DNA of 64,000 nt, taken from assembly GCF_000802235.1 (NCBI RefSeq), contig NZ_JTDL01000109.1:1-64000 (forward strand). The letters run 5' to 3'. Both the position numbers and the translations under genes were made by a program. The DNA comes from Sinomonas humi. GTDB taxonomy: Bacteria > Actinomycetota > Actinomycetes > Actinomycetales > Micrococcaceae. Below, piece after piece: positions 25,870 to 32,213 of the stretch (within the stretch, counting starts at the first letter, position 1; every line of letters begins with the position of its first letter). Below the pieces are notes generated by a model, which was not told where the DNA came from, did no database searches, and worked only from the letters and a program-made list of their open reading frames with translations.

Positions 25870-26424
25870 TTGGAGCCCCACGAGGATCCAAGCCGCGAGA
25901 TCCCCACGATGGATCCCGGCGACCACGCTGAACTCTTCACCGCAGCCTTCCGTACCCTCTCGCCGTCGGTGCGCGGCTATCTGAGGGCACGCGGGGTCGA
26001 GGACAGCGAGGCGGTGACTCAAGACGTCTTCCTTTCGCTGTACTCCCGGATCGGGAGCCTCAAAGGAGGTCTCGAGGGGGCGAAGGCCCTCGTCTTCACG
26101 ATCGCCCACTCCCGCGCCGTCGACCACCACCGGCGCCGCGAGCGGACTCCGGCCCTCGTTCCCCACGATCCCGAACTGGATTCCCGCACCACACCGGCCA
26201 CGACCGAAGACCTCGCCCTCGGCGGGGCAGGCGCGTTGAGCCTCCTGAACTCCCTGACAGACGACCACCGCGAGGTCCTCCTCCTCCGGGTCGTCGCGGA
26301 TCTGTCGATCGAGCAGACCGCCGAAATCATGAGCCGCACCGCCGGCGCCGTCAAACAGCTCCAGCGGCGGGCCCTCGAAGCCCTGAGAAGTCACGCAGTC
26401 ATCACAGAACTGAGCCCGTCATGA
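25870..26424 (+). CDS. ECF-type RNA polymerase sigma factor
   Basis: 184 residues. Region 2 (about 18-85) contains DSEAVTQDVFLSLYSRIGSL, and region 4 (about 115-175) contains SLTDDHREVLLLRVVADLSIEQTAEIM. A TTG start with AAGGGAG upstream is preferred; an internal ATG at 25909 lacks a good ribosome-binding site. The stop overlaps the next gene (ATGA), which encodes a single-span membrane protein, the usual arrangement for a sigma factor and its membrane anti-sigma factor. Confidence 0.9.
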   Translation: MEPHEDPSREIPTMDPGDHAELFTAAFRTLSPSVRGYLRARGVEDSEAVTQDVFLSLYSRIGSLKGGLEGAKALVFTIAHSRAVDHHRRRERTPALVPHDPELDSRTTPATTEDLALGGAGALSLLNSLTDDHREVLLLRVVADLSIEQTAEIMSRTAGAVKQLQRRALEALRSHAVITELSPS

Positions 26425-27233
26425 ACCCCATCAACGATCGCGAGACCGACGATCACAACGACCAGAGGGTCATCGATCAGGTCCTGACTGACGTCGACCC
26501 CGACAGCGCCGATTCCCTCAGGCCGCTGCTCGCCGAACTGCGCACGCTGGCCCACGGAGACGCCGTAGAGCCCGGGCCGCTGCTCGAGGCGCTCCTGCTG
26601 ACCGAGGAGGCCGCCGCGACCTCCGAGGCGCCCGCATCCGAAGCGCCCGCCCCTGGTCCCGCGATCACTGGCACTCCAACCTTGCCCGCGCTCCGGGTCA
26701 TCGAGGGGGACGGCGCGTCCCGTCCCCCTCGCCCTGCCCGGCGTACCCGCCGCCGTCGTCCGCTCGCTGCCGCGCTCGTCCTGACGGCGGCAATCGGCGC
26801 CGGGACCGCCGCCGCGGCAGCAGCCGACGAGGGTTTCCGCTCGACGCTCAACGACGGCATCAACTCGGTCATCAGCGTTCTCGGGGGCCATGCGGCGAGC
26901 ACTCCCTCCTCGCCTCCCGCCGCGCCTGTCCCAGCCACAGTGCCCGCCCCCGCGGCTCCGTCAGCGGGCCCGTCCGCCCCAGCGTCGCCTGAGGCGGGAC
27001 AAAGTGAGACGGCGGGCCCGCGCGCGGAGGCGCCGGCGCCGTCGTCGGCCGCCACGAGCGCACCGCGGACGACGGCGGGTTCCAGCACGGCGTCCCCCTC
27101 ACCGAAGGCGAGCCTCCCGGCGCTGCCGACCCAGCTGCCGAGCCCGAATCTCGGCGTTCCCCTTCCGAAGCTTCCCGCGGTCCCCGGAGTCCTCCCGACA
27201 GCGCCGACCGGGCTCCCGGGGGGCCTGCACTAG
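26421..27233 (+). CDS. Putative membrane anti-sigma factor with Pro/Ala-rich exterior
   Basis: 270 residues: an acidic N-terminal cytoplasmic part (1-100), a basic patch RRTRRRR, one membrane span (about 114-133) and a long Pro/Ala/Ser outer region. The N-terminus has no HXXXCXXC zinc motif. Anti-sigma function is inferred from ATGA coupling to the sigma gene and the single-span topology, in the way RsdA-like factors pair with SigD-like sigmas. It could instead be a target gene. Confidence 0.65.
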   Translation: MNPINDRETDDHNDQRVIDQVLTDVDPDSADSLRPLLAELRTLAHGDAVEPGPLLEALLLTEEAAATSEAPASEAPAPGPAITGTPTLPALRVIEGDGASRPPRPARRTRRRRPLAAALVLTAAIGAGTAAAAAADEGFRSTLNDGINSVISVLGGHAASTPSSPPAAPVPATVPAPAAPSAGPSAPASPEAGQSETAGPRAEAPAPSSAATSAPRTTAGSSTASPSPKASLPALPTQLPSPNLGVPLPKLPAVPGVLPTAPTGLPGGLH

Positions 27234-28227: not shown

Positions 28228-28281
28228 CTGTGCAAATAAGCAGCCCTGTGCAAATAAGGGGGCGCAGCACGAACCTATGAT
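28228..28281 (+). promoter_or_regulatory. tadA promoter with 13-bp direct repeats
   Basis: CTGTGCAAATAAG occurs at 28228-28240 and 28246-28258, spaced by 18 bp. A -10-like TATGAT (28276-28281) lies seven bases before the ATG at 28289, which would give a leaderless mRNA. Confidence 0.5.
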
Positions 28282-28288
28282 TGACAGC

Positions 28289-28801
28289 ATGGCCGCCCCG
28301 GAGTCTGCGCTCGACGCGTCCCCCTACGGGACGCCTTCCTATGAAGCGTGGATGCGGGTGGCGATCCAAGAGGCCAAGGCCGCCCTCGCGACCGGTGACG
28401 TGCCTATCGGCGCCGTGGTCGTCGATCCCGGCGGCGAGGTGATCGGGGTTGGGCGCAACGAGCGCGAGGCGCTCGCCGACCCCACCGCGCACGCCGAAGT
28501 TCTCGCAATCCGCGCTGCCGCTGGCGCGCTCAGAGCCCACGATCGTGGTGATGGCTGGCGTCTCGAGGACTGCACGCTCGTCGTGACGCTCGAGCCCTGC
28601 GCGATGTGTGCGGGCGCGGTCGTGCTCGCACGCATTCCGCGCGTCGTCTTCGGTGCGTGGGACGAGAAGGCAGGCGCTGCCGGCAGCGTCTTCGACATCC
28701 TCCGGGAACGGCGGCTCAACCACCGGGCGGAAGTCTATGGAGGAGTGCTTGGCGAAGAGTGCGCGGAGCTGCTGCGGGAGTTCTTCGCGGCCCATCGGTA
28801 A
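28289..28801 (+). CDS. tadA: tRNA-specific adenosine deaminase
   Basis: 170 residues from 28289 (ATG at 28277 is the alternative, adding four). Zinc ligands are in HAE (about residues 68-70) and PCAMC (about 104-107). It deaminates the wobble A of tRNA-Arg(ACG) to inosine; that tRNA gene is present at 2577. The start was chosen because TATGAT is well placed as a -10 for leaderless initiation here and there is no ribosome-binding site. Length and motifs match TadA and not a guanine or cytosine deaminase. Confidence 0.93.
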   Translation: MAAPESALDASPYGTPSYEAWMRVAIQEAKAALATGDVPIGAVVVDPGGEVIGVGRNEREALADPTAHAEVLAIRAAAGALRAHDRGDGWRLEDCTLVVTLEPCAMCAGAVVLARIPRVVFGAWDEKAGAAGSVFDILRERRLNHRAEVYGGVLGEECAELLREFFAAHR

Positions 28802-28842
28802 CCCAACCTCACATTTCCTGCCCCCACAGCGTCTACCAAGTG

Positions 28843-29346
28843 ATGGACATGAAACAGCCCTTCGAAAAGCTCGTGGAACTGCACGGCGCCACGGTGCTGC
28901 GGGTGTGCCGAGCTGTCGTGGGACCCGCGGAGGCTGAAGACGTATGGCAGGAAACCTTCCTCGCCGCGCTGCGCGCGTACCCCGAGCTCCCTCCCGACGC
29001 AAATAAGGAGGCGTGGCTTGTGACCATCGCCCATCGCAAGAGCATCGACGCCATGAGGTCGAATGGAAGGCGGCCCGTGCCCATCGAAGCCGTTCCTGAG
29101 ACGCCTTCCCCTCACGGCGTCCCTGGCTCCGGAGACGATGGCTGCGGACTCTGGAGCAGCGTGGCCAGGCTGCCCGACAAGCAACGGAGGGTCATCGCCT
29201 ACCGCTACCTCGCGGACTTGGCCTTCAATGACATCGCCGCCATTGTCGGCGGCACTCCTGCCGCAGCCCGGCGCGCTGCTTCGGACGGCCTCAAGTCGCT
29301 CCGTTCACGCCTCGTGGCCTCGCAGCCAGAAGGAGAAAGCGCATGA
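28843..29346 (+). CDS. ECF-type sigma factor heading an alkylation-repair operon
   Basis: 167 residues. Region 2 (about 5-75) has AEDVWQETFLAALRAYPEL and EAWLVTIAHRKSIDAMRS; region 4 (about 105-160) has ARLPDKQRRVIAYRYLADLAF and a helix-turn-helix. The frame is open upstream, but family similarity begins at MKQPFEKLVELHG; ATG 28843 and 28849 are both possible. Its stop overlaps the ogt start. No anti-sigma gene is adjacent. The position suggests it transcribes the repair genes behind it and perhaps itself. Confidence 0.9.
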   Translation: MDMKQPFEKLVELHGATVLRVCRAVVGPAEAEDVWQETFLAALRAYPELPPDANKEAWLVTIAHRKSIDAMRSNGRRPVPIEAVPETPSPHGVPGSGDDGCGLWSSVARLPDKQRRVIAYRYLADLAFNDIAAIVGGTPAAARRAASDGLKSLRSRLVASQPEGESA

Positions 29347-29969
29347 ACAACACCGAGTTGGGCCCCGTCGATATCGCCCTTGCCCCCGAACTCATCACCG
29401 TCGAACCCGAAGTCCTCGGCCGTCTCCATGCTGGGCTCGCCGAGCGTGCTTCGCGCGAGGGCATCCTCGACGTCGCTTACCGGATCGTGGAGACCCCGGT
29501 AGGGAAGCTCCTGCTCGCATCGACGGAACGTGGCCTGGTCCGGGTCGCGTACGAGCGTGAGGGCCTCGACGCCGTGCTCAACACCCTCTCGGAACGCTTG
29601 AGCCCGCGGATCCTCGAAGCCCCCGCGCGGCTCGGTGAGGCCGCACGCCAGGTCGAGGAGTACTTCTCCGGGCGGCGCCACGTCTTCGATCTCCCCATCG
29701 ACCTTGCCCTCTCGGCTGGCTTCCGGCGCACCGTGCTCCAGCACTTGTCAGGGATCGGCTTCGGTCGAACCGAGAGCTATGCGGAAGTAGCCCGCGCGGT
29801 CGGCAACCCCAAGGCGGTGAGGGCAGTCGGGACAGCGTGTGCGACGAATCCGCTGCCGGTCGTCGTGCCGTGCCACCGAGTGCTCCGTTCTGATGGGAGC
29901 CTCGGGGGTTACATCGGCGGTCTGGACGCCAAGACGACCCTGCTTCGGCTCGAGGCGGCCGCGGCGTGA
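29343..29969 (+). CDS. ogt: Methylated-DNA--protein-cysteine methyltransferase
   Basis: 208 residues. The suicide acceptor Cys is C177 in VVPCHRV; YAEVARAVGNPKAVRAVG and the final GGYIGGLDAKTTLLRLE are also standard. It removes O6-alkyl groups from guanine. Residues 1-45 form an extra acidic, helical extension before the usual start (DVAYRIVETPVGKLLLAS) and could contact the sigma factor; this is inference. Coupled by ATGA upstream and GTGA downstream. Confidence 0.95.
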   Translation: MNNTELGPVDIALAPELITVEPEVLGRLHAGLAERASREGILDVAYRIVETPVGKLLLASTERGLVRVAYEREGLDAVLNTLSERLSPRILEAPARLGEAARQVEEYFSGRRHVFDLPIDLALSAGFRRTVLQHLSGIGFGRTESYAEVARAVGNPKAVRAVGTACATNPLPVVVPCHRVLRSDGSLGGYIGGLDAKTTLLRLEAAAA

Positions 29970-30667
29970 ATGCCCTGTTCGGCGATGACCTCCTCGATCG
30001 GCCGCGCCGTGAGGTCGCTCCGGGAGCCGTACACTTGCCGGGCTGGCTCTCGATCGAGCAGCAGGCGTGGATCGCGGAGCGTTTCCGCGAATGGACGGCC
30101 GGCCCTGTGCCGCTTCGAGGTGCGAAGATCCGGGGCCACGAGATGTCGGTCAAGACGGTGTGCCTAGGGTGGCATTGGCAGCCGTACAAGTACACGCGCG
30201 AGGCAACGGACGTGAACGGGCGGCGGGTTCTGCCATTCCCCGATTGGATGGTCCGGCTCGGACACCGGGCGGTCGCGGAGGCGTATGGAATGCCGGCTTC
30301 CGCGGCCGACCTGTACACGCCCGATACGGCGCTCGTGAACTTCTACGACGCCGAAGCACGGATGGGCATGCACCAGGATCGCGACGAGGTGTCGCTGGAG
30401 CCGGTCGTGTCCCTCTCAATCGGGGACAGTTGCGCGTTCCGCTTCGGGAACACGGAGAACCGAGGGCGTCCCTACGAAGACCTCTCCCTTGAATCGGGGG
30501 ACCTCTTCGTCTTCGGCGGCCCGTCGCGGCTCGCGTTTCACGGCATCACCAAGGTCTTCCCCGGAACGGCTCCCACGGGCTGCGGAGTCCAGAACGGGCG
30601 TATCAATATCACCCTGCGCGTCACTGGCCTGCGCGACACCGAACGAAGGGAACCTGAGACCCAATGA
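29966..30667 (+). CDS. alkB: AlkB-type 2-oxoglutarate/Fe(II) dioxygenase
   Basis: 233 residues. Iron ligands are H136 and D138 in MHQDRDE and a distal His at about 192 in AFHGITKV. The 2-oxoglutarate-binding RINITLR follows, with Arg at about 212 and 218. It oxidatively demethylates 1-methyladenine and 3-methylcytosine in DNA or RNA. GTG start overlapping the ogt stop; ATGA overlap with tag. Confidence 0.95.
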   Translation: MNALFGDDLLDRPRREVAPGAVHLPGWLSIEQQAWIAERFREWTAGPVPLRGAKIRGHEMSVKTVCLGWHWQPYKYTREATDVNGRRVLPFPDWMVRLGHRAVAEAYGMPASAADLYTPDTALVNFYDAEARMGMHQDRDEVSLEPVVSLSIGDSCAFRFGNTENRGRPYEDLSLESGDLFVFGGPSRLAFHGITKVFPGTAPTGCGVQNGRINITLRVTGLRDTERREPETQ

Positions 30668-31293
30668 GCGAAGCAATAGTTGAGGCCTCCGAACCGAGCC
30701 CTCTGAGCACAGTTGTCATCGGGGAGGACGGGCTCGGCCGCCCTGTCTGGGCCAGCACAGATTCTCTTCTTCGGGACTACTACGACACCGAATGGGGTAT
30801 GCCCGTTCGGGACGAGCAGGGACTCTTCGAACGGATCAGCCTCGAGGGATTCCAAGCAGGTCTCTCGTGGGCGACGATCCTCCGGAAGCGCCCGGCGTTC
30901 CGCGAGGCGTTCGCCCAGTTCGATCCCGAGGTCGTGGCGGCGTTCACCGAGGATGACGTCGAGCGGCTCATGCTCAACGAGGGCATCATTCGCAACCGAG
31001 CCAAGATCAGGGCGACGATTCGCAACGCCCAGGCGACCCTCGCGCTGAGAGAGGAAGGCGGACTCGTCGAATTCGTGTGGTCCTTCCAACCAGAGTCGAC
31101 CCCGGCGCCCCGTTCCTTGGCTGAGATCCCGTCGAGCTCACCCGAGTCGATTGCCCTCTCGAAGGCGCTACGGAAGAAGGGCTTCTCGTTCGTCGGCCCG
31201 ACGACCATGTTCGCCCTCATGGAGGCGGTCGGCATCATTGACACCCATCTCGTGGACAGCCACCGTCGCGGTACGTCGGGCGTCTGGGCGTGA
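30664..31293 (+). CDS. tag: DNA-3-methyladenine glycosylase I lacking zinc ligands
   Basis: 209 residues. YYDTEWGMPV, SLEGFQAGLSW (active-site Glu at about 61) and FKFVG-like FSFVGPTTMFALMEAVG identify Tag. In E. coli Tag a zinc ion is held by Cys4, His17, His175 and Cys179. Here the equivalents appear to be Pro27, Tyr40, a retained His in DTHLVDS and no Cys, so the zinc snap is probably absent. The substrate pocket otherwise looks intact, so it should still excise 3-methyladenine. Confidence 0.92.
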   Translation: MSEAIVEASEPSPLSTVVIGEDGLGRPVWASTDSLLRDYYDTEWGMPVRDEQGLFERISLEGFQAGLSWATILRKRPAFREAFAQFDPEVVAAFTEDDVERLMLNEGIIRNRAKIRATIRNAQATLALREEGGLVEFVWSFQPESTPAPRSLAEIPSSSPESIALSKALRKKGFSFVGPTTMFALMEAVGIIDTHLVDSHRRGTSGVWA

Positions 31294-32213
31294 TGCCGGG
31301 CGGGGAGATGACGCGGGTCGGGGAATCCGTGGCAGCACTGCCGTGGCGCGTGCGGCTCGAGGCATTAGGTGGGCTTGAGCCCGATGCGATCCTCGGGAGC
31401 CTCGCGGCCCACACCGTGCCTGGAGCCGAGCAGACGGACCTCGGGGCCCGCACCCATTCGCGGCTGGTCTCCAGCCGCTTCGGCCCACAGCGCGTCCTCC
31501 TCCATTTCGACGAGGGTGGAATCGATCTCACGATCGAGAACCATCTCGAAGCCATGGCCCCCTCCCTCACGGACCATGACGAGTTGGCGGCCCTGTCTGC
31601 CACCATCCGGGCGTGGTTCGATCTCGATACGGATCTCGAACCGATCCGCCGAGTCCTCGACGCGGATCCCATGCTCACACCGCTCGTGGCGTCGCGCCCG
31701 AACCTGCGGGTGATCGGTACCCCTGACCCCTTTCAGAGCGCGGTGACGACAGTCCTTGGCCAACAGGTCTCCCTGCCCGCGGGCAGGACCTTCGCCGGGC
31801 GCCTAGTCGCTGCCTACGGCGAGCCCGTGCAGAGCGGGCTTCGGCGCTTCCCAGAAGCGAAGGTGCTCGCCGAGGCCTGCGCTGAGGAGCTTCGCGCCGC
31901 CGTCGGGCTCACTTCCGCCCGCGCAGCGACCGTGCTCTCCCTTGCCCAGGCTTGGCTCGTCTCGAATGACGGACTTGGCATGCCCACCCGGGAAGCGCTC
32001 CTCGCAGTGCCTGGCATCGGCCAGTGGACCGTCGACTACCTTGCGGTCCGCTTCGGAGACCGCGACGCCTTCACTCCGGGAGATCTTGTCCTGCGGCGAG
32101 CCCTCGGCGGCGTTACGGCAAAGCAAGCGACCGTACGGGCCGAGGCGTGGCGCCCATACCGCGCGTACGCCCTCATGCACCTCTGGACGCACACCGCCTA
32201 CACACGTCTCTGA
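31290..32213 (+). CDS. alkA: DNA-3-methyladenine glycosylase II
   Basis: 307 residues. An N-terminal AlkA-type domain is followed by the HhH-GPD fold: FQSAVTTVLGQQVSLPAGRT, the hairpin VPGIGQWTVDYLAVR and the catalytic Asp in FTPGDLVLRR. It excises 3-methyladenine, 7-methylguanine and other alkylated bases. There is no Ada-type methyl-sensing domain on it. GTG overlapping the tag stop is the outermost start; an ATG at 31308 behind GGGGAG is also plausible. Last gene of the operon, one base from the convergent surE stop. Confidence 0.94.
   Translation: MMPGGEMTRVGESVAALPWRVRLEALGGLEPDAILGSLAAHTVPGAEQTDLGARTHSRLVSSRFGPQRVLLHFDEGGIDLTIENHLEAMAPSLTDHDELAALSATIRAWFDLDTDLEPIRRVLDADPMLTPLVASRPNLRVIGTPDPFQSAVTTVLGQQVSLPAGRTFAGRLVAAYGEPVQSGLRRFPEAKVLAEACAEELRAAVGLTSARAATVLSLAQAWLVSNDGLGMPTREALLAVPGIGQWTVDYLAVRFGDRDAFTPGDLVLRRALGGVTAKQATVRAEAWRPYRAYALMHLWTHTAYTRL

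What the first reader, a model, noticed from the sequence alone, without database searches (positions are those of the whole stretch)
28843..32213. Alkylation-repair operon headed by an ECF sigma factor
Five genes, each overlapping the next by 4 bp, encode a sigma factor, O6-alkylguanine transferase, AlkB, Tag and AlkA. In well-studied bacteria the adaptive response is governed by Ada, which senses damage through its own methylated Cys; no Ada domain and no anti-sigma factor is seen here. The layout implies an alternative adaptive response in which a dedicated sigma factor drives direct reversal, oxidative demethylation and two base-excision enzymes from one transcript. How the sigma is restrained is open.
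Basis: partly seen in the sequence, partly recalled or inferred. Interest (0 to 1): 0.75.

Follow-up and report, generated by a model that had tools for sequence, protein, structure and literature searches.

The report
Sigma factor–alkyltransferase DNA repair operon
A soil bacterium that lacks the classical Ada regulator has an operon in which a dedicated sigma factor is paired with an O6-alkylguanine DNA-repair protein that may act as both damage sensor and brake, a pairing found in many actinobacteria.

Summary
Confirmed: five genes (sigma, Ogt, AlkB, Tag, AlkA), each overlapping the next by 4 bp, in a Sinomonas-like genome with no Ada zinc-domain match. The sigma-Ogt pair is conserved: in 100 genomes drawn from the phylum (own included) the sigma occurs in 24, and all 24 have an Ogt directly downstream. 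A conserved promoter, CTCAC-N17-CGTY, precedes the sigma in 179 of 224 upstream regions (shuffle mean 0.3), usually 8-9 nt before the start codon, so transcripts are probably leaderless. In the fetched loci the motif also precedes other Ogt, AlkB and Oxygenase-NA genes, so the sigma very probably drives its own operon. The paired Ogt keeps its catalytic Cys and has an N-terminal helix region scored in 209 of 252 sigma-linked Ogts but 4 of 105 others; it sits in the usual anti-sigma slot. My model: unmethylated Ogt holds the sigma, self-methylation releases it. That step is inferred; co-evolution analysis was inconclusive. A review lists group ECF122, with Ogt neighbours, as 'unknown mechanism': the association is known, the mechanism is not.

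The parts
28808..28836 (+). predicted promoter of the operon, CTCAC (-35) - 17 nt - CGTCTAC (-10); start codon 9 nt after CGTC, so probably a leaderless transcript
   Evidence: seen by eye; spacing 17 in 73 of the 74 loci with a hit, 99 tested; 179 of 224; shuffle mean 0.3; 114 of 141 in loci fetched after the motif was defined. Only match in the own genome to CTCACRTTN14-16CGTCT.
28843..29346 (+). ECF-type sigma factor (sigma2 + sigma4, 167 aa), probable ECF122 member
   Evidence: Pfam; 256 distinct homologous ORFs at >= 95 bits collected
29343..29969 (+). Ogt-E: O6-alkylguanine-DNA alkyltransferase with N-terminal extension (predicted helix at residues 22-38); proposed damage sensor and anti-sigma factor
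   Evidence: Pfam; Cys177, Asn169, Arg160, Tyr146 at 100% in 251 homologues; AF2 mean pLDDT 93.9, helix 22-38; extension model >= 10 bits in 209 of 252 sigma-linked vs 4 of 105 unlinked Ogts
29966..30667 (+). AlkB-type 2OG-Fe(II) demethylase
   Evidence: PF13532 1.3e-48
30664..31293 (+). Tag, 3-methyladenine DNA glycosylase I
   Evidence: PF03352 3.3e-68; TIGR00624 4.7e-68, just under its cut-off
31290..32213 (+). AlkA, 3-methyladenine DNA glycosylase II
   Evidence: PF06029 + PF00730

Best explanation
The operon is a self-contained, Ada-independent response to DNA alkylation. The ECF sigma transcribes its own operon from CTCAC-N17-CGTY. The Ogt, made in step with it through translational coupling (ATGA/GTGA overlap), binds and restrains the sigma while its active-site Cys177 is free. 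When the Ogt repairs O6-alkylguanine it alkylates itself irreversibly, which in known alkyltransferases disturbs the fold; the sigma is released and makes more Ogt, AlkB, Tag and AlkA. Fresh unmodified Ogt then re-captures the sigma, so the response measures and ends itself. SHOWN by sequence: operon, no Ada-domain match, conservation of the pair, conserved promoter and its presence before other repair genes in the fetched loci, intact catalytic residues, sigma-associated N-terminal extension. INFERRED: that this sigma reads this promoter, sigma-Ogt contact, inhibition, and release by methylation.
For: Sigma next to Ogt in 24 of 24 sigma hits of a 100-genome phylum sample and in 249 of 252 distinct sigma ORFs at >= 95 bits with at least 700 nt downstream; of the 3 misses L274 is a sigma split over two frames whose second half does precede an Ogt, L241 and L306 are real. 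A start codon giving exactly a 4-bp overlap in 205 of 251 pairs (the start nearest to that overlap was chosen). Extension model >= 10 bits in 209 of 252 linked vs 4 of 105 unlinked Ogts; among linked Ogts outside the training loci 114 of 157. The best PDB matches are alkyltransferases aligned over 160-177 columns of the 208-residue model, which leaves the extension without an evident counterpart (inferred from lengths). Promoter in 179 of 224 and 114 of 141 loci fetched after the motif was defined. In 783 kb of loci, 96 motif sites vs 1 in the reversed control: 51 before sigma, 25 before an Ogt gene, 3 before SnoaL genes, 1 AlkB, 1 Oxygenase-NA, 15 unassigned. In 19 of 68 loci none of the searched repair genes follows the pair and no second Ogt precedes it, so the Ogt is the only constant partner, and a self-activating sigma needs a brake. 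Alkylated AGTs are destabilised (PMC4605297, passages). PF02805 in 25 of 123 sigma-bearing vs 148 of 273 other genomes.
Against: No direct evidence of binding. Coupling analysis on 251 pairs (effective 176): the top inter-protein score (1.64) lies within four fine within-cluster shuffles (tops 1.51-1.94); the mean of the top 40 (1.145) is only slightly above them (1.01-1.10), though above coarse (0.93-0.96) and global (0.82-0.84) shuffles; the extension is not enriched (5 of 40; expected 18%). Two loci keep the extension without a sigma (L019, L067) and two sigmas lack an Ogt. 43 of 252 linked Ogts score below 10 bits for the extension; the lowest-scoring ones printed come from distant lineages with a different N-terminus. 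The extension model was trained on the first loci, L019, L067 and L074 included. The helix is predicted at pLDDT about 90-94, so it may simply be part of the Ogt fold. At genus level the Ada/sigma avoidance is not significant (16 of 109 genera with both, p = 0.24). The loci scanned for the motif were chosen for having this Ogt, so one search is not a genome-wide regulon test; in the own genome the looser motif has 4 sites against 2 control hits.
Confidence: 0.58

Rival explanations
1. Methylated Ogt-E is a positive co-factor: alkylation makes it bind or stabilise the sigma, much as methylated Ada becomes an activator; unmodified Ogt-E does not inhibit.
For: Same conservation, coupling and extension data. 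Precedent: methylated E. coli Ada activates, and alkylated human AGT contacts the estrogen receptor (PMC10779285, passages).
Against: The gene order and overlap are those usual for sigma/anti-sigma pairs (general knowledge); alkylated AGTs are unstable (PMC4605297, passages), which suits loss of an inhibitor better than gain of an activator.
Confidence: 0.17
2. Ogt-E is only a repair enzyme in the regulon; the sigma is limited by low basal expression, proteolysis or an unlinked regulator, and the N-terminal helix is structural.
For: No clear coupling signal; helix predicted with high confidence within the Ogt model; extension persists in two loci without sigma; two sigmas without Ogt.
Against: This Ogt is tied to the sigma while other repair genes come and go (Tag 25, AlkB 23, Oxygenase-NA 20, AlkA 8 of 68 loci), although an extension-less second Ogt lies upstream in 34 of 68; positive autoregulation with no brake would lock on.
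Confidence: 0.2
3. The sigma is controlled by another stress and the repair genes are part of a broader regulon.
For: Motif also precedes a SnoaL-like gene in three loci; 15 of 96 sites were unassigned.
Against: 78 of 96 sites lie before sigma, Ogt, AlkB or Oxygenase-NA genes (in loci chosen for this Ogt); a single strict site in the own genome.
Confidence: 0.05

Closest known systems
ECF sigma group ECF122 (Casas-Pastor et al. 2021, as cited in PMC8999054)
   Same: ECF sigma without recognised anti-sigma, conserved neighbour a 6-O-methylguanine DNA methyltransferase; the representative listed is from Cellulomonas, and L052 (Cellulomonas) has this pair
   Different: The review files it under unknown mechanism; the passages read give no promoter, regulon, Ogt extension or model. 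Group membership could not be scored here
Ada adaptive response (E. coli ada-alkB, alkA, aidB)
   Same: Works like it: an alkyltransferase thought to double as sensor, with AlkB and AlkA in the regulon
   Different: No Ada N-terminal zinc-domain match in the genome; control by a sigma factor; the sensing Cys would be the O6-alkylguanine acceptor, not the phosphotriester acceptor
[quoted passage not shown]
   Same: Sigma followed at once by an overlapping partner gene; probably autoregulated promoter
   Different: Partner is a DNA-repair suicide enzyme; no anti-sigma domain found in it
Ogt/MGMT (M. tuberculosis Ogt 4bhb, Ada-C 1sfe)
   Same: Fold and PCHR active site
   Different: About 44-residue N-terminal extension with a predicted helix

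Membership tests
ECF sigma factors | sigma2 and sigma4 domains only | tested here: met
   PF04542 at 10-77, PF04545/PF08281 at 106-154 of 167 aa
ECF122 | conserved MGMT neighbour, no anti-sigma domain | tested here: met
   description taken from PMC8999054
ECF122 | match to the group's own profile/phylogeny | not testable with these tools
   Group profiles are not among the libraries and the defining paper is not held
Ada adaptive response | Ada N-terminal Zn/methylphosphotriester domain | tested here: not met
   PF02805: no match in the own genome
Class I anti-sigma (for Ogt-E) | anti-sigma domain in the partner | tested here: not met
   Only MGMT domains in Pfam; the 39 PDB matches at E <= 0.001 are alkyltransferases or alkyltransferase-like; this does not test inhibition itself
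Anti-sigma factor by function (for Ogt-E) | binds and inhibits the cognate sigma | tested here: inconclusive
   Co-evolution not clearly above null; association and extension statistics are indirect
Ogt/MGMT | MGMT fold with PCHR active site | tested here: met
   Pro176, Cys177, His178, Arg179 at 100% in 251

The most novel reading that the evidence does not exclude
A DNA-repair suicide enzyme is itself the anti-sigma factor: each self-alkylation event irreversibly frees a sigma molecule, giving a stoichiometric, self-ending alkylation dosimeter that can stand in for Ada in actinobacteria and travels as a cassette (also found on three plasmid records).
Probability: 0.5. Interest if true: 0.85.

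Novelty: new variant of a known kind. Interest (0 to 1): 0.66.

Why it matters
It would explain how bacteria without Ada induce alkylation repair, add a new type of sigma control (an irreversible enzyme modification read directly by a sigma factor), and turn a group listed as 'unknown mechanism' into one with a predicted promoter, regulon and testable switch residue. A compact sigma/sensor/promoter set could also serve as a genotoxin reporter.

Tried and rejected
Loose promoter pattern CTCACN16-18CGTCTNC over 38 genomes matched in all 38, many sites looking like coding sequence, and was dropped for stricter forms. Direct coupling analysis was inconclusive. Ada/sigma avoidance is strong by genome (Fisher p = 1.4e-10, 6 of the 25 double genomes by weak PF02805 matches of E 1e-6 to 1e-3) but not by genus (p = 0.24), so it is not a main argument. 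Literature searches in the held open-access library: judged by their listings except for the papers named; ECF122 occurs in two held papers, of which only PMC8999054 concerns sigma factors.

Rows dropped: 5 duplicate loci left out of the conservation and profile sets and L061 for lack of an ATG/GTG start; identical sigma cores merged, and 8 sigma ORFs under 95 bits left out of the pairs: of these, four have no Ogt (L105, L106, L108, L109, 58-68 bits) and four do (L164, L208, L210 and the second half of L274, 59-91 bits). Counted without that cut, 253 of 260 ORFs with room have the Ogt. Sigma genes headed by a second Ogt within 15 nt or with under 80 nt upstream were left out of the 224; loci with under 3.5 kb downstream left out of the 68. 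The tree used 45 of 252 linked and 58 of 105 unlinked Ogts; it needs 10 changes of the label (at least 3 by well-supported branches; shuffled mean 34), i.e. clustered but not one clean clade.
Full report
What is there. Five + strand genes at 28843-32213 (sigma, Ogt, AlkB, Tag, AlkA), each overlapping the next by 4 bp, with clear domain matches. Upstream is tadA (28277-28801). The nearest named relatives are Sinomonas. The own genome has no PF02805 (Ada) match and one Ogt match at E <= 1e-18, the one in this operon.

The pair is the conserved unit. Of 96 Ogt relatives found, the best 80 were kept and examined: 77 have the sigma directly upstream; L074 is cut by the contig end, L019 and L067 lack it. 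In 100 genomes drawn evenly from the phylum, own genome included, the sigma (E <= 1e-20) occurs in 24 and in all 24 an Ogt hit lies directly downstream on the same strand (compared by coordinates); Ogts at E <= 1e-18 occur in 82 of 100, so most genomes with an Ogt lack this sigma at that threshold. In wider samples the sigma (E <= 1e-22) is in 46 of 325 (class) and 123 of 396 (order) genomes. Of 252 distinct sigma ORFs at >= 95 bits with at least 700 nt downstream, 249 have the Ogt; the others are L274 (sigma split over two frames, Ogt present), L241 and L306. Without the score cut it is 253 of 260. In 205 of 251 pairs a start codon gives an overlap of exactly 4 bp (the start nearest to that overlap was chosen).

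Gene content. In 68 loci with enough downstream DNA: a second Ogt upstream in 34, Tag in 25, AlkB in 23, an Oxygenase-NA in 20 (the query gene is PF09859), AlkA in 8; 19 show none of the searched genes after the pair and no second Ogt (similarity searches only, so other genes may be missed). The window's order without a second Ogt was seen in 2 of 68; with it, in 4; some loci are fuller. A RefSeq-annotated plasmid of Tsukamurella tyrosinosolvens carries ogt-sigma-ogt-2OG oxygenase, each overlapping the next by 4 bp, then alkB; a Rhodococcus antarcticus plasmid carries sigma-ogt-oxygenase and a small Ada-metal-binding protein. Three of 72,556 plasmid records matched the sigma.

Promoter and regulon. 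Upstream regions share CTCAC(A/G)TT...CGTCTAC. Spacing was 17 in 73 of the 74 loci with a hit, of 99 tested. On the larger set, 179 of 224 sigma-headed regions have CTCAC-N17-CGTY within 80 nt (20 shuffle rounds: mean 0.3, maximum 1), and in 143 of the 179 the start codon follows after 8-9 nt, which suggests leaderless transcripts. In loci fetched after the motif had been defined it is 114 of 141. Where a second Ogt overlaps the sigma, a motif was found before that Ogt in the loci listed; in the larger set 29 of 36 loci with a second Ogt and no motif before the sigma had one further upstream. Over 783 kb of loci there are 96 sites against 1 in the reversed control: 51 before sigma, 25 before an Ogt gene, 3 SnoaL, 1 AlkB, 1 Oxygenase-NA, 15 unassigned. 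These loci were chosen for the Ogt, so this is not a genome-wide test. In the own genome the strict form occurs once, at 28808; a looser form four times, against two control hits. Recognition by this sigma is inferred from position and conservation.

The Ogt. Cys177, Asn169, Arg160, Tyr146 and the PCHR motif are invariant in 251 homologues, so it is probably an active alkyltransferase. Its N-terminus adds about 44 residues with conserved positions (L28 89%, L32 86%, A36 89%, D43 94%, Y46 89%). AlphaFold2 gives mean pLDDT 93.9, pTM 0.86 and a helix at 22-38; the best PDB matches are alkyltransferases over 160-177 alignment columns of 208 residues. The extension model scores at least 10 bits in 209 of 252 sigma-linked and 4 of 105 unlinked Ogts; the four are L019, L067, L074 and L274, of which only the first two clearly lack the sigma, and the first three were in the training set.

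Mechanism. A sigma that transcribes its own gene needs a brake. The only constant partner is Ogt-E, made in step with it through the overlap, the usual position of an anti-sigma gene (general knowledge). Alkylated alkyltransferases lose stability (PMC4605297, passages), which offers a direct release step. I therefore propose sequestration by unmodified Ogt-E and release on self-alkylation. Binding and release are inferred. Coupling analysis neither supported nor excluded contact.

Relation to known systems. PMC8999054 (first part of section 8 and passages read) names 6-O-methylguanine DNA methyltransferases as conserved neighbours of ECF122 and files the group under unknown mechanism; the original classification was not available. 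By their listings, the searches showed no held paper on a sigma-driven alkylation response of this kind. The operon works like the Ada response but is not a member: no match to the defining Ada domain was found. In 396 genomes of the order, PF02805 occurs in 25 of 123 with the sigma and 148 of 273 without, a genome-level avoidance that is not significant by genus.

Noticed in passing
window 25870-27233: A second ECF sigma (25870-26424) overlaps by 4 bp a 270-aa protein with one hydrophobic stretch (by eye) and no Pfam match: looks like an ordinary sigma/membrane anti-sigma pair.
   Followed up: partly
L082, within 90 nt upstream of the sigma: A close relative keeps a short piece resembling the second Ogt (AVYFPGRWTLP-like reading) before the promoter, so this lineage may have lost that gene; read by eye, not tested.
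   Followed up: no
L014:9298, L022:9365, L026:7723: The promoter motif precedes a SnoaL-like protein gene in three different genera: a possible extra regulon member of unknown role.
   Followed up: partly
L046:6199-6944: A second motif with near-leaderless start precedes an Oxygenase-NA (PF09859) gene apart from the sigma operon.
   Followed up: partly
L241 and L306: Two high-scoring sigma genes with no Ogt in about 1.4 kb downstream.
   Followed up: partly
L274: Sigma gene split over two reading frames in front of an intact-looking Ogt.
   Followed up: partly
L360:5888-6190: A stand-alone 100-aa Ada metal-binding protein follows sigma-ogt-oxygenase on a Rhodococcus antarcticus plasmid.
   Followed up: no
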